Shown here: piece by piece, positions 45,676 through 53,738 of the stretch | How positions within the stretch are numbered: the stretch's first letter is position 1 | How the letters are laid out: each line of letters begins with the position of its first letter | Source of the DNA: Anaerobaca lacustris | Lineage (GTDB): Bacteria; Planctomycetota; Phycisphaerae; Sedimentisphaerales; Anaerobacaceae | DNA length: 64,000 nt | Direction of reading: 5' to 3' | Assembly: GCF_030012215.1 (NCBI RefSeq) | Contig: NZ_JASCXX010000006.1 | Coordinates: 1 to 64,000 of the forward strand | Program-made: the position numbers and the translations under genes | Notes under the pieces: model-generated | What the model saw: the letters and a program-made list of their open reading frames with translations, nothing else | The model's database searches: none | Told to the model about the DNA's origin: nothing

Positions 45676-47520
45676 ATGCTGCCTCCGGTCTCCATCAAAA
45701 CAAGGATCTTGATCTCATTCTTCGTCGTGGTTCTGACGCTTTCGGTGTCGATCGCGCTGCTCGGATACTACGTGATCGAGCACGACATCTTCAGACGAAC
45801 CGAGCGAAAGGTGCTCAACGATTTGAAGGTCGCTCGGATGGTCTATACGGGCGAGATCGACCGAATCGGCCAGGGTCTGCGGCTGGTGCCTCCTGATGGA
45901 GATCTTGAGGAACTGCGGCATCGGCTCGATCTGCACTACCTGCGGTATGTCCCGGCGGCGGCGTTCGCGAGCCTCCGCAGCGATCTGGCGCGGCTTGCGG
46001 CGGCGGATGGACGGGCCCGGGGAGGGACCCGAAGGATGTCGCCCGAGGAGCTGGACTTGCTGCCGGGTGACTTCGCGGGCAAGCGTCGCATTCAGATCAA
46101 GGCCACCCCGATGGCCGGGCCCACGGAGCGGGAGGTCCTCGATTACGTCATGGCCAAGGAATATGTGGTGCCGGTGACAGGCGAGGCGGGTCGGGTTGAC
46201 GGTGTCCTCTACGGCGGGCGCATCGTCAATCGCGACTACACGTTCGTCGACCGCATCCGCGACCTGGTCTACAGCAGGGAGCTGTACCGGGGCAAACCGG
46301 TCGGCACCGTGACCATCTTCCAGGACGATGTCAGGATCTCGACGAATGTGCTCGACGAAAACGGGCAGCGGGCGATCGGAACGAGGGTTTCGGCGCAGGT
46401 TTATGAGAAGGTGGTCAAGGAAGGACAGGTCTGGCATGACAGGGCATTTGTCGTGACGGACTGGTACAAAACGGCGTACGAGCCGATCAGGGACATCGAA
46501 GGCGAGGTCATCGGCATTCTCTATGTTGGTACGCTGGAGCAGCCGTTCAGCGACACGGCCCGCCAGATCCTGCTGATCTTCCTGGCCGCCGTTGGGGCGG
46601 CGACCGTCATTGCGGTGCTGTTCTCGTTCGTCCTGGCCGGTGCGCTGTCGAAGCCCCTGACACAGGTGGTCCACGCCAGCGAGTGCCTGGCCTCGGGCGA
46701 CTGGGGCTGCCAGGTGAATGCGAACACCTCGATCAAGGATATCAACAGCATGGCCGAGGCCTTCAATGCGATGGCCATCGGCTTGAAGGAACGCCAGGAG
46801 AGCCTGCGGGTTTCCAACGAGAAACTGGCGGCGATGAACAAGAGCTACGTGGACCTCATCGGGTTCGTCGCCCACGAACTGAAGGGGATCCTGGCCTCGG
46901 CGGTGATGAACGCCTACGCCGTGCGCGATGGCTATCTCGGCATGGTCAATTTCAAACAGCGCAAGGCCCTCGATTCGGTCGCACGGAACCTGGATTACCT
47001 CGATGCGACCGTCAAGAAGTTCCTGAACCTCGGGCGGGTCGAGCGAGGCGAGCTCGAAGTGCACAAGACGACGCTCAATCTGAAGAAGGACGTGTTCGAC
47101 GCTTCGATGCATTCGCTGGCGGCGATTTCTCTGCGTAAGAAGCTGGATATCTCGAACGAGATCGACCCGAGTCTGGACGTTCAGGCCGACGCCGACCTGA
47201 TGCAGATCGTGGCCAACAATCTCGTGAGCAACGCGATCAAATACAGTCCCGACGCCGGGCGGATCAGCGTGACGGCGCGGCCGATCAACGGCAAGGTCGA
47301 AGTCGACGTGTACAACGATTCGACGCCCATCAGCGAGGAACAAAGGGCCCGGCTGTTCCAGAAGTTCTCGCGGCTGGACAGCCCGGAAACCAAGAAAGTC
47401 AAAGGCACCGGATTGGGCCTGTACATCACCAAGCAGATTATCGAGCGGCACGGCGGCAGCATCCGGGTCGAGCCTCGAGAACACGGCAACTCGTTCGTTT
47501 TTCAGATCGAAAGGAACTGA
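45676..47520 (+). CDS. Cache-domain sensor histidine kinase
   Basis: Membrane sensor kinase of 614 residues, 4 nt after rex. Membrane spans at about 12-32 and 295-317 flank a large periplasmic Cache-type domain that ends with the usual YEPIRDIEGEVIGILYVGTL. HAMP follows (about 318-370), then a coiled segment and the phospho-acceptor region FVAHELKG with His400, then the ATPase domain with NNLVSNAIKYS and GTGLGLYITKQIIERHGG. Likely output is the receiver-only regulator encoded at the end of the same operon (54857). It probably senses a small periplasmic metabolite; the ligand is unknown. Confidence 0.85.
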   Translation: MLPPVSIKTRILISFFVVVLTLSVSIALLGYYVIEHDIFRRTERKVLNDLKVARMVYTGEIDRIGQGLRLVPPDGDLEELRHRLDLHYLRYVPAAAFASLRSDLARLAAADGRARGGTRRMSPEELDLLPGDFAGKRRIQIKATPMAGPTEREVLDYVMAKEYVVPVTGEAGRVDGVLYGGRIVNRDYTFVDRIRDLVYSRELYRGKPVGTVTIFQDDVRISTNVLDENGQRAIGTRVSAQVYEKVVKEGQVWHDRAFVVTDWYKTAYEPIRDIEGEVIGILYVGTLEQPFSDTARQILLIFLAAVGAATVIAVLFSFVLAGALSKPLTQVVHASECLASGDWGCQVNANTSIKDINSMAEAFNAMAIGLKERQESLRVSNEKLAAMNKSYVDLIGFVAHELKGILASAVMNAYAVRDGYLGMVNFKQRKALDSVARNLDYLDATVKKFLNLGRVERGELEVHKTTLNLKKDVFDASMHSLAAISLRKKLDISNEIDPSLDVQADADLMQIVANNLVSNAIKYSPDAGRISVTARPINGKVEVDVYNDSTPISEEQRARLFQKFSRLDSPETKKVKGTGLGLYITKQIIERHGGSIRVEPREHGNSFVFQIERN

Positions 47521-47524
47521 CACA

Positions 47525-47881
47525 ATGCCGACTCCATTGGACCTCATCAAGAAGAAACGGGCCGAAGCGGTCAGTCGGATCATCGGCAAGGGGTATCTCT
47601 CGACCAAGCGCGTCTACATCGGGATGGCCACGTGCGAGATCGCGGCCGGATCCAAGGACGTCATGGAGGTCTTCCAGAAGGCGATCAGTCTCGGATTGAC
47701 GGACGTTTACCTCAGCCAGAAGGGCTGCGCCGGGCGATGCAACCTCGAACCAACCGTCGAGGTGATCGAATCGGGCAAGAGTCCCGTCAAGTACGGCAAG
47801 GTGGACAAGGACAGGGCGATCCAGATCATCGAACGACACCTCAAGAACGGCCAGGTCATTCAAGAGTGGGTCATTGACTAA
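47525..47881 (+). CDS. hndB: Thioredoxin-like [2Fe-2S] ferredoxin subunit (HndB type)
   Basis: A 118-residue thioredoxin-like ferredoxin with four cysteines expected to hold one [2Fe-2S] cluster: Cys37 in ATCEIAAG and the CAGRC pair with the preceding KGC region near residue 67. The same small protein accompanies NAD(P)-linked [FeFe]-hydrogenases as the HndB subunit. It lies 4 nt after the kinase gene and 18 nt before the flavoprotein subunit. Confidence 0.8.
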   Translation: MPTPLDLIKKKRAEAVSRIIGKGYLSTKRVYIGMATCEIAAGSKDVMEVFQKAISLGLTDVYLSQKGCAGRCNLEPTVEVIESGKSPVKYGKVDKDRAIQIIERHLKNGQVIQEWVID

Positions 47882-47899
47882 GTACGAAGGGAACCTGCG

Positions 47900-49690
47900 G
47901 TGGCTACAACCTACGGAATCATTGTGTGTGACGGCACTCCGTGCATCAACAGCGGGGCGCGAACGCTGACCTCGGCGTTGCAGGAGCAACTGGACCGGCA
48001 CGGCCTGCGCGATCGGGTGACCATCAGCCTGTCGGGCTGTCTGGGGATGTGCGACAAGGGCCCGATCCTGGTGGTCAATCCGGGCTATACGATCTACGGC
48101 CACGTGACCGAAGCGGATATCCCCGAAATCATCGAGGAGCATCTGGTGCACGGCCGACCCCTGGCGCGACTGGCGATCCAGGAGGACCATCTGTACAACC
48201 GTTTCTTTCGCGTGTTCGGGGACGAGAAGTTCTTCGGCAAGCAGATGCGCATTGCGCTTCGCAACTGCGGGATCATCGACCCGGAGAACATCGACGACTA
48301 CCTTTCGCTTCGCGGCTTCGAGGCGCTGGCCAAGGCGCTCACGGAACTGACGCCGGAGCAGGTGGTGGCGGAGGTCGAGAAGTCCGGCCTGCGGGGTCGC
48401 GGCGGCGCCGGCTTTCCGACCGGATTGAAGTGGAAGTTCACCGCCGCACAGAAGGCCACGCCCAAGTACGTCATCTGCAACGCCGACGAAGGCGACCCGG
48501 GCGCCTTCATGGACCGCAGCGCCATCGAGGGCGATCCGCATACGGTCGTTGAAGGCATGGTCATCGGCGGCTATGCCGTCGGCGCCAGCAAAGGGATCGT
48601 GTATATCCGAGCCGAGTATCCCCTGGCGATCCGACGCATCACCAAAGCGGTCGAGGATGCCCGAGCCCACGGTCTGCTCGGCGAGAACATCCTGGGTTCG
48701 GACTTCTCGTTCGACATCGAGATCCGGCTCGGCGCCGGCGCCTTCGTCTGCGGCGAAGAAACCGCGTTGATTCACTCGATCGAAGGGGCGCGCGGCATGC
48801 CTCGTCCCCGCCCGCCATATCCGTCGGTCCAGGGCCTTTTCGGCCGGCCGACGCTTATCAACAACGTCGAGACGTGGGCCAATATCCCCGTCATTCTCCT
48901 CGACGGCGCCAACTGGTTCCGTACGGTTGGGACCGAGAACAGCAAGGGGACGAAAGTCTTCGCGCTGGCGGGCAAGGTTGTCAATACGGGCCTGATCGAG
49001 GTGCCGATGGGCACGACGCTGCGCGAGATCATCTACGAGGTGGGAGGGGGCATCCCTGACGGCAAGAAGTTCAAGGCCGTTCAGACGGGCGGTCCGTCCG
49101 GCGGCTGTTTGCCCGAGGGGTATCTCGACACGTCCATCGACTACGATTCGCTGGCGCGGGCCGGCTCGATCATGGGCTCCGGCGGCATGATCGTCATCGA
49201 CGAAGACTCGTGCATGGTCGATATCGCGAAGTTCTTTCTCGAGTTCACGCAGAACGAATCGTGCGGCAAGTGCACGCCGTGCCGCGAAGGCACCAAACGA
49301 ATGCTCGAGATCCTCACGCGGATCACCGAGGGCCAGGGCCGCCCCGGCGACGTCGAGAAGCTCGAACGGTTGGGAGACACCATCCAGAAGGCGTCGCTCT
49401 GCGGGCTGGGCCAGTCGGCGCCGAATCCGGTCCTGAGTACGATCAAGAACTTCCGCGAGGAATACGAAGAGCACATCCACGAGAAGCGATGCCGCGCCAG
49501 GGCCTGCACGAACCTCGTGACCTATCAGATCACCGAGAAGTGCGTCGGCTGCGGCGCCTGCCGAAGGGTGTGCCCGGTGGCAGCCATCACCGGCGCGGCG
49601 AAGAAGCTGCACGTCATCGATCAGGACAAATGCGTCAAGTGCGGGATGTGCTTCAACACCTGCAAGTTTGACGCCATTGCGAAGGTTTGA
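47900..49690 (+). CDS. hydB: NADH-binding flavoprotein subunit of [FeFe]-hydrogenase (HydB/HndC)
   Basis: A 596-residue NuoF-like subunit, GTG start with GAAGGGA upstream. An N-terminal [2Fe-2S] thioredoxin-like domain (CDGTPC, SGCLGMC) leads into the flavin and NADH sites (GRGGAGFPTGLKW, GAGAFVCGEETALIHSIEG), then the [4Fe-4S] motif ESCGKCTPCREG. A C-terminal two-cluster ferredoxin domain follows (CVGCGACRRVCPVAA, CVKCGMCFNTCKFDA). It exchanges electrons between NADH, ferredoxin and HydA, the architecture of electron-bifurcating enzymes. Cytoplasmic; no signal peptide. Confidence 0.9.
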   Translation: MATTYGIIVCDGTPCINSGARTLTSALQEQLDRHGLRDRVTISLSGCLGMCDKGPILVVNPGYTIYGHVTEADIPEIIEEHLVHGRPLARLAIQEDHLYNRFFRVFGDEKFFGKQMRIALRNCGIIDPENIDDYLSLRGFEALAKALTELTPEQVVAEVEKSGLRGRGGAGFPTGLKWKFTAAQKATPKYVICNADEGDPGAFMDRSAIEGDPHTVVEGMVIGGYAVGASKGIVYIRAEYPLAIRRITKAVEDARAHGLLGENILGSDFSFDIEIRLGAGAFVCGEETALIHSIEGARGMPRPRPPYPSVQGLFGRPTLINNVETWANIPVILLDGANWFRTVGTENSKGTKVFALAGKVVNTGLIEVPMGTTLREIIYEVGGGIPDGKKFKAVQTGGPSGGCLPEGYLDTSIDYDSLARAGSIMGSGGMIVIDEDSCMVDIAKFFLEFTQNESCGKCTPCREGTKRMLEILTRITEGQGRPGDVEKLERLGDTIQKASLCGLGQSAPNPVLSTIKNFREEYEEHIHEKRCRARACTNLVTYQITEKCVGCGACRRVCPVAAITGAAKKLHVIDQDKCVKCGMCFNTCKFDAIAKV

Positions 49691-49699
49691 GGATTCCAC

Positions 49700-51478
49700 A
49701 TGGACAACAGCAAGATCACCATCACGATCAACAATCAGCCGTACAAGGTCGATCCGGGGCAGACGGTGATGCAGGCGGCCGATCAGTGCGGATACCGCAT
49801 CCCCCGCTTGTGCTATCATCCCAAGCTGTCGATCGAAGGGGCGTGTCGCGTTTGCATCGTCCAGATCGAGGGCGTCCGGAACTATGTGGCGTCCTGCGCC
49901 TATCCTGTGGCGGACGGCATGAAGGTCCACACCAACACCAAGGAACTGCGCCGGGCCCGACGGGACATCGTCGAGCTGCTGCTCGACAACCATCCGATGG
50001 ACTGCCACACCTGCGACCGGGACAGCAACTGCGAATTGCAGCGACTGGCCTACTCGATGGGCATTCGCCAGCGGCATTTTGAAGGGGAGCGCAAACACTA
50101 CGAGATCGACCTGTCCTCGACCAGTGTCGTTCGCAACCCGGACAAATGCATCCTTTGCGGGCGCTGCGTCCGCATGTGCTCGGAAATCCAAGGCGTCCAC
50201 TGCCTGACGCAGGCCCATCGGGGGTTCAATACGGTCGTCATGCCGGCCTACAATCTGCCGTTTGCCGAGACCGTGTGCACAACCTGCGGCCAGTGCATCA
50301 ACGTCTGCCCGACGGCCTCGTTTGTGGAGAAGAACTACACCCAGGACCTGTTCGAGAAGCTCAACGATCCGGACCTGATCACGGTTGCACAGGTTGCGCC
50401 GTCGGTTCGCGCCGCCATCGGCGAAGGTTTCGGCCTGCCGCCCGGACGCAACATGGAGGGCCAGATCGCCGCAACGCTGCGGCACATGGGCTTCAACTAC
50501 GTTTTCGACACGCAATTCTCGGCCGATCTGACCATCATGGAGGAAGCCAGCGAATTCCTCGAACGCGTTCAGTCCAAGGGCCCGCTGCCCCTGATCACCT
50601 CGTGCTCCAGCGCCTGGATGAAGTACTTGGAGCAGTTCTATCCCGACCTGATCGAGAACATCTCGACGGCCAAGTCGCCGATGTCGATGGCCTCGGCGAT
50701 GATCAAGACGTACTTTGCCGAGAAGATCAAGGTCGATCCGCAGAAGATCCTCAGCGTGGCGTTCATGTGCTGCACGGCCAAGAAGTACGAGGCGGCCCGG
50801 CCGGAGCTGGACGTGCGCGGGATGCGGGCGACCGACATCGTCATCACCACGCGCGAGCTGGCCTGGATGGCCAAATCGGCCGGCATCGACTTCGTCAACA
50901 TCAAGCCGGAGAAGTTCGACGAGCCGCTGGGACTCTCCTCCGGCGCCGGCGCCATCTTCGGCGTCACCGGCGGCGTGATGGAGGCCGCGATTCGTACGGC
51001 CTACGAACTCTGTACCGGCGAAACGCTGATCGACATCGAGTTGAACGATATTCGCGGCTTCAAAGGCATCAAGGAGGCCAAGGTCGTCCTCGACGGCCAG
51101 GAACTGCGCATCGCCGTCGCGCATGGGCTGGGCAACGCCCACGAGGTGCTCGAGATGGTTCGCAAGGACCGCAGCCGGTTCCACTTCGTCGAGGTGATGG
51201 GATGCCCCGGCGGGTGCATCGGCGGCGGCGGCCAGCCCTATGCGACCGCCAACTCGATTCCGTTGGATGAGGAATGCCTCAGACTGCGCGCCCAAGCACT
51301 CTACGGCCTGGATCGCGAGAAGACGATTCGTCGCAGCCATGAGAACCCGGACGTGCAGCGGCTGTACCGGGAATTCCTGGGGCGGCCGCTCAGCGAGAAG
51401 TCGCACGAGTTGCTCCACACGCATTACAAGGCGCACCTGCCGAAGGGGATCGTCTCGCCCAATCTCAAGGTGGTCTAA
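49700..51478 (+). CDS. hydA: [FeFe]-hydrogenase catalytic subunit with non-canonical H-cluster motifs
   Basis: A 592-residue HydA/HndD homologue. N-terminal [2Fe-2S] domain, a His-Cys3 [4Fe-4S] site (NHPMDCHTCDRDSNCELQ), a two-cluster ferredoxin (CILCGRCVRMC, CTTCGQCINVC), then the H-cluster domain. The L1 motif reads T300-S-C-S-S-A-W306 instead of TSCCPxW, so the position of the second Cys, a known [4Fe-4S] ligand, is Ser303. L2 reads M356-C-C-T-A-K-K-Y-E instead of MPCxxKxxE, giving an extra Cys357. L3 is normal (E498, C502, C506, GGGG). A small-subunit-like tail follows. It is fully embedded in a hydrogenase operon, so it is probably functional, but its active site may be modified. Confidence 0.85.
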   Translation: MDNSKITITINNQPYKVDPGQTVMQAADQCGYRIPRLCYHPKLSIEGACRVCIVQIEGVRNYVASCAYPVADGMKVHTNTKELRRARRDIVELLLDNHPMDCHTCDRDSNCELQRLAYSMGIRQRHFEGERKHYEIDLSSTSVVRNPDKCILCGRCVRMCSEIQGVHCLTQAHRGFNTVVMPAYNLPFAETVCTTCGQCINVCPTASFVEKNYTQDLFEKLNDPDLITVAQVAPSVRAAIGEGFGLPPGRNMEGQIAATLRHMGFNYVFDTQFSADLTIMEEASEFLERVQSKGPLPLITSCSSAWMKYLEQFYPDLIENISTAKSPMSMASAMIKTYFAEKIKVDPQKILSVAFMCCTAKKYEAARPELDVRGMRATDIVITTRELAWMAKSAGIDFVNIKPEKFDEPLGLSSGAGAIFGVTGGVMEAAIRTAYELCTGETLIDIELNDIRGFKGIKEAKVVLDGQELRIAVAHGLGNAHEVLEMVRKDRSRFHFVEVMGCPGGCIGGGGQPYATANSIPLDEECLRLRAQALYGLDREKTIRRSHENPDVQRLYREFLGRPLSEKSHELLHTHYKAHLPKGIVSPNLKVV

Positions 51479-51490
51479 GGGGGTGGTTTT

Positions 51491-53008
51491 GTGACGACAG
51501 TTGCATTCAACAACAACACAACGGCCAGCGTGGCCGATTGGATCAAAGACCGGATCAAGCCGGAGCAGATCGAGAAGTATCTCGACGACGGGCGATGCTT
51601 TATCGACGCCGAGGCCATCGAACGGGCTCTGGATGCCAACAGGAAGCCCGATCCGAAGCGGGTCAGAGACATTGTGCAGAAGTCTCTGGCCATCGAGACG
51701 CTGACGCCGGAGGAGACGGCGTGCCTGATCCACGTGGACGATCCCGAACTGCTCGCCGAGATGCGGCAGGCAGCGCAGGCGGTCAAGATCAAGGTCTACG
51801 ACAATCGCATCGTAACATTTGCGCCGTTGTATCTGGGCAATCTGTGCGTCAACAACTGCGCGTACTGCGGTTTCCGCAGCAGCAACGGCTCGGAACATCG
51901 CCGCGTGCTGACGCTCGACGAGGTCCGGCGGGAGATCGAAGTCCTGGCCGGGCAGATCGGCCACAAGCGGCTGATCGTCGTCTACGGCGAACACCCGGCC
52001 ACCGACGTTCAGTACATCGCCTCGACACTCCAGGCGATTGCAGATGTGAAGGTCAAGACACGGAGAGGCTGGGGCCAGATTCGCCGCTGCAACGTCAATG
52101 CGGCCCCGATGTCGGTCGAAGAGCTGGCCATGCTCAACGAGGTCGGCATCGGCACGTTCCAGGTGTTCCAGGAGACGTATCACCGACCGACCTACGAGCG
52201 GCTGCATCCGCAGAACACCATCAAGGGCAACTACCTTTGGCGGCTTTATGCGATGCACCGCGCGATGGAGGCCGGCATCGACGACGTCGGGATCGCCCCG
52301 CTGCTCGGCCTCTACGACTGGCGGTTCGAGGTGATGGCGCTGCTGTATCACGCCATCGAACTCGAGGCGAAGTTCGGCATCGGGCCGCACACGATCTCGT
52401 TCCCGCGAATCGAGCCGGCGCACAACACGCCGTTGACCCAGAACCCGGGATATGCCGTCGGCGACGAGGAATTCAAGAAGCTGGTGACTGTCATCCGGCT
52501 GGCGGTTCCGTATACCGGCATGATCCTCACCGCACGGGAAGACGCCCAACTGCGGCGAGAGGTCCTGCCGCTGGGCTGCACCCAGACCGATGCATCGAGC
52601 CGGATCGGGATCGGCGGCTACGCCGATCTGATCGACGGCGATCAGCAGGGCGACCGCCAGCAGTTCCTTCTGGGCGACACCCGTTCGCTCGATACCGTGG
52701 TCCGGGAGTTGGCCGAGGCCGGCTGCATCACGTCCTTCTGCACCGCCGGCTATCGCTGCGGGCGAACCGGGCAGAAGATCATGGGACTGTTGCGGAGCGG
52801 CAAGGAAGGGCAGTTCTGCAAGCTCAACGCCGTCATCACATTCCGGGAATGGCTCGATGATTTCGGCAGTCCCGAGACGATTGCGGTCGGCGAGAAGGTG
52901 ATCGCCCAAGAGATCGAGCAGGTCAGAGAGAAGATGCCGGAGATCTTTGACCAGTTCATGCGCTATTACGAGAAAACTCAGGCCGGCGATAGAGACCTGT
53001 ATTTCTGA
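51491..53008 (+). CDS. hydG: [FeFe]-hydrogenase maturase HydG with altered auxiliary-cluster motif
   Basis: Radical SAM tyrosine lyase of 505 residues that makes the Fe(CO)2CN synthon of the H-cluster. The SAM cluster motif is C119-V-N-N-C123-A-Y-C126. The C-terminal auxiliary cluster motif, normally CX2CX22C, here has Cys417 and Cys443 at the expected spacing but Gly420 in place of the middle cysteine, with Cys423 three residues on (CTAGYRCGRTG). GTG start with AAGGGGGTGG upstream, 12 nt after hydA. Its stop codon lies inside the left copy of a 14-bp repeat flanking the inserted element. Confidence 0.9.
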   Translation: MTTVAFNNNTTASVADWIKDRIKPEQIEKYLDDGRCFIDAEAIERALDANRKPDPKRVRDIVQKSLAIETLTPEETACLIHVDDPELLAEMRQAAQAVKIKVYDNRIVTFAPLYLGNLCVNNCAYCGFRSSNGSEHRRVLTLDEVRREIEVLAGQIGHKRLIVVYGEHPATDVQYIASTLQAIADVKVKTRRGWGQIRRCNVNAAPMSVEELAMLNEVGIGTFQVFQETYHRPTYERLHPQNTIKGNYLWRLYAMHRAMEAGIDDVGIAPLLGLYDWRFEVMALLYHAIELEAKFGIGPHTISFPRIEPAHNTPLTQNPGYAVGDEEFKKLVTVIRLAVPYTGMILTAREDAQLRREVLPLGCTQTDASSRIGIGGYADLIDGDQQGDRQQFLLGDTRSLDTVVRELAEAGCITSFCTAGYRCGRTGQKIMGLLRSGKEGQFCKLNAVITFREWLDDFGSPETIAVGEKVIAQEIEQVREKMPEIFDQFMRYYEKTQAGDRDLYF

Positions 53009-53014
53009 CAAGAG
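53001..53014 (+). repeat. 14-bp direct repeat, left copy
   Basis: ATTTCTGACAAGAG, containing the hydG stop codon. Identical to 53186-53199. The pair flanks the inverted-repeat element. Confidence 0.9.
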
Positions 53015-53180
53015 TTCTGTAAAATGGAGGTTAGGCCTACATTGCTCAAGGAAATCGTTCTTCTGATTTCCTTGAGTGATTACGACAACAAACTACATCT
53101 GCAGGGTTACGGTTATGGGAGGAAAAATCAAGACACCGATTTTTCCTCCCATAAGTAGGCCTAACCTCCATTTTTCAGAA
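53015..53180. mobile_element. MITE-like nested inverted-repeat element
   Basis: A 166-bp non-coding element with 26-bp terminal inverted repeats (53015-53040 and 53155-53180) that differ at one position. Inside are two further hairpins: a 16-bp stem with two G-U pairs (53041-53056/53065-53080, 8-nt loop) and a perfect 17-bp stem (53113-53129/53138-53154, 8-nt loop), joined by a 32-nt unpaired linker. The whole can fold as a three-way junction. It is AT-richer than the genes around it. The flanking 14-bp direct repeats look like a target-site duplication, although CCCCA separates the right one from the terminus. Removing the element and one repeat copy would leave a normal 25-nt hydG-hydC spacing. 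Confidence 0.7.
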
Positions 53181-53185
53181 CCCCA

Positions 53186-53199
53186 ATTTCTGACAAGAG
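53186..53199 (+). repeat. 14-bp direct repeat, right copy
   Basis: Second ATTTCTGACAAGAG, 5 nt outside the right inverted-repeat terminus and 20 nt upstream of the next start codon. Confidence 0.9.
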
Positions 53200-53219
53200 A
53201 TTTGACGAGGACATTGGAC

Positions 53220-53738
53220 ATGGCAACGACCCAGGCGAACGACGCCGTCGCACCGGATGAACAGAAACTCGCACAACTGAAGGACTTCATCGCTCAGACG
53301 CGGCAGGACGAGCATCCCGACTCCTTCCTGATCGCCGTCTTGCACAGGGCGCAGGAGCTTTACGGCTATCTGCCGGTTCCGGTGATGGACGAAGTCGCCG
53401 AGGCGATGGGGATTCCGACGGCGCATATCTGGGGTGTCGCGACATTCTATCACTACTTCAATCTGACGCCTCCGGGCCAACACGTGATCTCGGTCTGTCT
53501 TGGGACGGCCTGCTACGTGCGCGGGGCCGGACAGATCCTTCAGGCCCTCAAGGACGAACTGAAGATCGACATGGGGCAGGTGACGGAGGACGGGTTGTTC
53601 TCGTTGCAGCCGGCGCGCTGTCTCGGCGCCTGCGGTCTGGCCCCCGTCGTGATGATCGACGACAAGATTCACGGCGATCTGACGCCCAAGAAGATGGTCC
53701 AGATCGTCAACCAATACCGCAAGCAGGCCAAGAAGTAA
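53220..53738 (+). CDS. hydC: NuoE-like [2Fe-2S] subunit of the hydrogenase (HydC/HndA)
   Basis: A 172-residue 24-kDa-type subunit. The cluster is held by CLGTACYVRGA (C-X4-C) and RCLGACGLAP (C-X3-C). It pairs with HydB in NADH oxidation. ATG 53220 is chosen; the 48 codons open upstream read through the inserted element and are not part of the family. In most operons this gene is first; here it follows hydG, separated by the inverted-repeat element. Confidence 0.9.
   Translation: MATTQANDAVAPDEQKLAQLKDFIAQTRQDEHPDSFLIAVLHRAQELYGYLPVPVMDEVAEAMGIPTAHIWGVATFYHYFNLTPPGQHVISVCLGTACYVRGAGQILQALKDELKIDMGQVTEDGLFSLQPARCLGACGLAPVVMIDDKIHGDLTPKKMVQIVNQYRKQAKK

What the first reader, a model, noticed from the sequence alone, without database searches (positions are those of the whole stretch)
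53001..53199. Nested inverted-repeat element with duplicated flank inside the hydrogenase operon
Seen directly: 26-bp terminal inverted repeats with one mismatch, two internal hairpins (16 and 17 bp) with a 32-nt single-stranded linker, and identical 14-bp direct repeats outside. The left repeat includes the hydG stop codon. Removing the element and one repeat restores a tight hydG-hydC junction, which argues for insertion of a non-autonomous mobile element. The transcript would also carry a three-way-junction RNA between two cotranslated genes, possibly tuning hydC/hydE expression. I know of no named family with this layout.
Basis: partly seen in the sequence, partly recalled or inferred. Interest (0 to 1): 0.75.

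Follow-up and report, generated by a model that had tools for sequence, protein, structure and literature searches.

The report
Unnamed MITE family in planctomycetes
The folded DNA segment between two hydrogenase genes is one copy of a short 'hitch-hiker' transposable element, too small to move itself, that has scattered copies through many related planctomycete genomes, very often just in front of the ribosome-binding site of a gene.

Summary
In detail: a 166-bp core (53015-53180) with 26-bp terminal inverted repeats (one mismatch), two internal hairpins, a 32-nt linker and identical 14-bp flanking repeats (folding z about -13). It is one copy of a dispersed non-autonomous MITE-like family. 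The own genome holds two more copies, one internally deleted. A covariance model finds the family in 24 of 89 genomes of the GTDB family, some with dozens of copies, and rarely elsewhere in the class. At this site only sister species G005 shares it; four congeners have the empty junction. A second insertion is empty in two species. Target duplications are 6-7 bp in one subfamily, 8-12 bp in another. All three helices covary (40 of 52 pairs doubly changed in 76 copies), but G-U is not significantly commoner than A-C, so the constraint looks like DNA palindromes rather than a one-strand RNA. In 41 of 96 copies the core ends 20-40 nt from an SD plus start codon (controls 4-8%), in either orientation. 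No autonomous partner was found. The mobile-element reading is supported; the RNA-tuning idea is untested. No named family with this layout was found in the sources held here.

The parts
53001..53014 (.). left 14-bp direct repeat ATTTCTGACAAGAG; contains the hydG stop codon (53006-53008)
   Evidence: element-free junction in G001-G004
53009..53014 (.). CAAGAG: possible terminal extension of the element (CTCTTG in canonical orientation) or native target bases
   Evidence: other copies end CTCTTG; G003 empty site has AAGAG
53015..53180 (-). element core, canonical A-to-B orientation on the minus strand; R1 model positions 1-167
53015..53040 (.). terminal inverted repeat, left
53041..53080 (.). 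internal hairpin B
   Evidence: covariation
53081..53112 (.). linker, 32 nt, least conserved part
53113..53154 (.). internal hairpin A
   Evidence: covariation
53155..53180 (.). terminal inverted repeat, right
53181..53185 (.). CCCCA, element bases between the inverted repeat and the target duplication (other copies have 5-6 such bases)
53186..53199 (.). right 14-bp direct repeat
53204..53222 (+). hydC ribosome-binding region (GACGAGG) and start codon ATG at 53220, left intact
   Evidence: same bases in congeners
51491..53008 (+). hydG-like radical SAM gene (Radical_SAM + BATS)
53220..53738 (+). hydC-like gene (thioredoxin-like [2Fe-2S])

Best explanation
It is a non-autonomous mobile element of MITE type, one copy of a family found mainly in one family of the Sedimentisphaerales. 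Shown: dispersed copies, conserved ends, target duplications, element-free orthologous sites, no room for a transposase gene. Inferred: a transposase supplied in trans, most likely of the cut-and-paste DDE type, acts on the two ends and inserts the element into AT-rich DNA, duplicating about 6-12 bp. The terminal repeats and the two internal palindromes are kept as Watson-Crick palindromes at DNA level, probably because they serve end recognition or a hairpin/cruciform step. Copies accumulate, or are retained, just upstream of Shine-Dalgarno sites and then decay by internal deletion. Here it entered the hydG-hydC gap in the common ancestor of G000 and G005; a very stable hairpin in the operon mRNA would be a by-product whose effect on hydC/hydE is unknown.
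For: Further copies in the own genome and in 24 of 89 genomes of the family, 94 or so in G014 judging from 188 arm matches. Element-free hydG-hydC junction in G001-G004. Second filled/empty site, G005:C144 against G000 and G001. Target duplications above shuffled flank pairing: 6-7 bp beside CTGGAC/GTCCAG-type ends, 8-12 bp beside AAGGC/CTCAT-type ends. Orientation-independent placement and AT-rich targets. Deletion derivatives and solo ends. G-U 63 against A-C 48, p 0.18.
Against: No autonomous partner was found, so the transposase type is inference. Duplication length varies more than for most DDE transposases, and the 14-bp repeat here exceeds the family range unless CAAGAG is counted as element end. 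The second empty site differs from the filled one by an extra 8 bp beside the insertion. Most genomes are draft assemblies.
Confidence: 0.92

Rival explanations
1. A cis-acting RNA module (three-way junction, possibly with kissing loops) that regulates the downstream gene from just upstream of the Shine-Dalgarno, spread by transposition and kept because it is useful.
For: 41 of 96 copies lie 20-40 nt from an SD plus start codon. Helices covary. Hairpin loops are complementary beyond shuffled partners, 4.74 against 4.06 +/- 0.08.
Against: G-U is not significantly commoner than A-C, also on the strand transcribed into the neighbouring gene, 40 against 26, p 0.11. Either orientation is used (24 against 18). 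Patchy presence among congeners at the same gene. Many copies are decayed to solo ends.
Confidence: 0.15
2. The covariation is mutational and not selective: quasi-palindromes are kept perfect by template switching during replication, so neither RNA nor DNA structure needs to be functional.
For: Changes are almost purely Watson-Crick with few G-U or A-C intermediates. One double change separates the two species at the hydG site.
Against: Hairpins A and B keep consistent differences from each other across subfamilies, and all three helices are 97.9% paired in 76 copies, with wobble and single changes present too.
Confidence: 0.3
3. A REPIN-like element moved by a Y1/HUH (RAYT or TIRYT) transposase: two REP-like hairpin units in inverted orientation.
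For: The two halves (end plus hairpin) are related inverted units. Y1 genes are common in the family, 77 of 89 genomes.
Against: Target duplications are present, which established HUH single-strand transposition does not make. G014, with over 90 copies, and G018 have one weak Y1 match each. Ten sampled Y1 loci lack the ends. No GTAG tag 5' of the hairpin.
Confidence: 0.05

Closest known systems
Prokaryotic MITEs in general (review PMC10969869; e.g. Chunjie, QMITE1/2)
   Same: Short, no transposase gene, terminal inverted repeats, flanking duplications, AT-rich intergenic targets, truncated copies down to solo ends.
   Different: Two covarying internal palindromes plus linker inside the terminal repeats; sharp placement just upstream of Shine-Dalgarno sites; related autonomous element not found.
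Correia / NEMIS elements of Neisseria (PMC10969869, PMC2229807)
   Same: About 100-155 bp, long terminal repeats (about 26 bp, from memory), mostly immediately upstream of genes, hairpin in transcripts.
   Different: TA duplication (from memory) against 6-12 bp here; no sequence relation found; no sigma-70 promoter match in the window copy.
CIR elements of Caulobacter (PMC2229807)
   Same: Two long inverted-repeat arms joined by a linker, intergenic.
   Different: CIR lacks end-to-end pairing; here the terminal repeats pair and flanking duplications are seen.
REP / REPIN / TIR repeats with RAYT or TIRYT (PMC3733652)
   Same: Inverted hairpin units, known from Planctomycetes too.
   Different: Target duplications, no GTAG or CGTC tag, no link to Y1 genes.
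IS4-family insertion sequences (PMC2266710)
   Same: Target duplications of about 10 bp, variable in some elements.
   Different: No DDE_Tnp_1 gene with these ends among the 24 loci sampled in five copy-rich genomes.

Membership tests
MITE | shorter than about 500 bp with terminal inverted repeats | tested here: met
   166-bp core, 26-bp repeats
MITE | multiple dispersed copies at unrelated sites | tested here: met
MITE | flanking target-site duplication | tested here: met
   against shuffled pairing; lost or mutated in many older copies
MITE | empty orthologous sites | tested here: met
MITE | no transposase gene of its own | tested here: met
   166 bp; no transposase-sized ORF
MITE | ends shared with an autonomous element that can move it | tested here: inconclusive
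   none found in sampled loci and genomes; assemblies are drafts and lists were truncated
REPIN / RAYT-linked REP | GTAG (or CGTC) tag 5' of the hairpin | tested here: not met
   alignment; CTAC precedes hairpin A on the canonical strand
REPIN / RAYT-linked REP | linked Y1 transposase | tested here: not met
IS4-family-derived element | IS4-type transposase gene bounded by the same ends | tested here: inconclusive
   not found in 24 DDE_Tnp_1 loci
Known Rfam RNA family | match above gathering score | tested here: not met

The most novel reading that the evidence does not exclude
A transposable-element family whose insertion is actively directed to the stretch just upstream of Shine-Dalgarno sites, or kept there as an orientation-independent leader module, and whose terminal repeats, two palindromic arms and complementary loops form a nucleic-acid structure needed for mobility by a transposase not yet recognised.
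Probability: 0.25. Interest if true: 0.75.

Novelty: new variant of a known kind. Interest (0 to 1): 0.5.

Why it matters
It explains a striking structure inside a hydrogenase operon, describes an abundant repeat family for an order of mostly uncultured planctomycetes, and warns against reading these hairpins as locus-specific riboregulators. The sharp placement beside ribosome-binding sites and the Watson-Crick-only covariation make a concrete question testable: what directs or retains a mobile element at translation starts, and what moves it.

Tried and rejected
Rfam, phage and plasmid records and viral contigs: no match. Promoter and terminator scan of the window copy: none. Y1/RAYT as mobiliser: not correlated with copy number, ends absent from ten sampled loci. 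DDE_Tnp_1 loci in five genomes: ends absent. Widely spaced inverted ends in all fetched loci: one case, L197, which encloses host genes (an ndk-like and an OmpA-like ORF) and no transposase. Single ends in G125, G014, G018, G106, G107: deletion derivatives, decayed copies or contig edges. Target-primed retrotransposition was considered because duplication length varies; solo copies keep either end, so there is no one-sided truncation. An attC-like GTTAGGC core was noticed and dropped: reversed order and not conserved across subfamilies. Selection on structure at resident orthologous copies: pairwise comparison is uninformative because its consensus fold hides broken pairs. A first gene-context script was noisy at cut edges and is not used.

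Full report
WHAT IS THERE. The window's plus strand carries a [FeFe] hydrogenase operon; domains of the hydA-, hydG-, hydC- and hydE-like genes were checked. Between hydG (stop 53006-53008) and hydC (start 53220) lies a 166-bp core, 53015-53180, with 26-bp terminal inverted repeats, hairpins B (53041-53080) and A (53113-53154) and a 32-nt linker, flanked by identical 14-bp direct repeats. It folds far better than shuffled sequence, z about -13.

IT IS REPEATED. The own genome (G000) holds two further copies, one internally deleted. By DNA alone, 11 of 99 genomes including the own have matches. A covariance model built from 13 copies (R1) finds the family in 24 of 89 genomes of the GTDB family and 12 of 45 genera, with dozens of copies in several (arm counts). 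In 397 genomes of the class, 16 are positive, four of them outside the family and one of those weak. Records with exact matches to a degenerate end pattern are metagenome-assembled Phycisphaerae, Sedimentisphaerales or Planctomycetota. In the window's genus only G000 and G005 have it.

IT INSERTED. At hydG-hydC, G005 has the same element at 95% identity, while G001-G004 have an element-free junction; from hydG's TATTTC to TTTGACG it is 22 nt in all four against 23 nt deduced for G000 after removing the element and one repeat. A second site, G005:C144, is empty in G000 and G001, with an additional 8-bp difference beside the insertion. Over 89 copies, flank duplications exceed shuffled pairing: 6-7 bp beside CTGGAC/GTCCAG-type ends and 8-12 bp beside AAGGC/CTCAT-type ends. 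On that pattern the window's 14-bp repeat is probably an 8-bp duplication plus CAAGAG, which resembles both an element end and native target. In a few other copies, such as L022 and L161, the repeat likewise runs into element-end sequence.

HOW IT IS CONSTRAINED. In 76 copies, 52 pairs in three helices are 97.9% paired (85.7% in shuffles), 40 pairs show changes on both sides, and sliding partners by one to three columns destroys the signal. These counts are of related sequences, and the structure was derived from the same alignment. G-U (63) is not significantly commoner than A-C (48), also when read on the strand transcribed into the neighbouring gene, 40 against 26. That argues for Watson-Crick palindromes at DNA level, kept by selection or by template switching, rather than selection on one RNA strand. 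The loops of A and B are more complementary within copies than between copies, 4.74 against 4.06 +/- 0.08 for the longest run; this may be a kissing contact or a trace of the common origin of the two hairpins.

WHERE IT GOES. Of 96 copies, 41 have an SD plus start codon 20-40 nt from a core end, against 4.2% of non-coding control positions in the same loci (p 6e-27) and 8.1% of AT-rich ones (p 3e-17); either end may face the gene, 24 against 18. Ten bases beside each end are 63% AT, against 43% at 60-110 nt. The start caller is a simple script, and copies in related genomes are not fully independent. Targeting and retention are not distinguished.

MECHANISM. Duplications and paired ends suggest a DDE-type transposase acting in trans (inference, about 0.6 in my judgement). 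Y1/RAYT genes are widespread but nearly absent from the copy-rich G014 and G018. Sampled Y1 and DDE_Tnp_1 loci lack the ends, and the one widely spaced pair of ends encloses host genes. Many copies are reduced to solo ends or, in L220, to a bare 44-bp palindrome.

WHAT IT MEANS HERE. The hairpin lies between the hydG stop and the hydC ribosome-binding region, which is intact. An effect on hydC/hydE is possible and untested. Against the literature read (PMC10969869, PMC2229807, PMC3733652, PMC2266710) it belongs among prokaryotic MITEs. I found no named family with this layout in the sources held, which lack ISfinder and most subscription journals.

Noticed in passing
L125, L129, L152 (G014 copies), loop of hairpin A; L207 near 2466, hairpin B: Other short sequences sit inside hairpin loops of some copies, for example about 32 extra bases in loop A and a tccgccggcggattg block in hairpin B; probably nested small repeats.
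   Followed up: no
L195, L196, L197 (G014): A second repeat beginning GGGCATGGTTCAA and ending in a long inverted repeat around GGTGGCAGCC recurs next to or inside element copies.
   Followed up: no
L220 1485-1528; L221 1543; L222 1619: Copies reduced to the two terminal repeats back to back, a near-perfect 44-bp palindrome.
   Followed up: partly
L013, L035 (G012): A 207-bp variant with a longer linker; many G012 contigs end in or at such copies, so the repeat probably breaks that assembly.
   Followed up: no
L022 978-1149, L161 1151-1317, L135 1192-1354; window 53001-53199: Direct repeats extend into bases matching the element's own terminus (AAGGCTT, CTCAT, CTCTTG), hinting at microhomology between terminus and target.
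   Followed up: partly
window 47438-53011, minus strand: A 1857-codon open frame runs antisense to most of the hydrogenase operon; probably a by-product of GC-rich codon usage.
   Followed up: no
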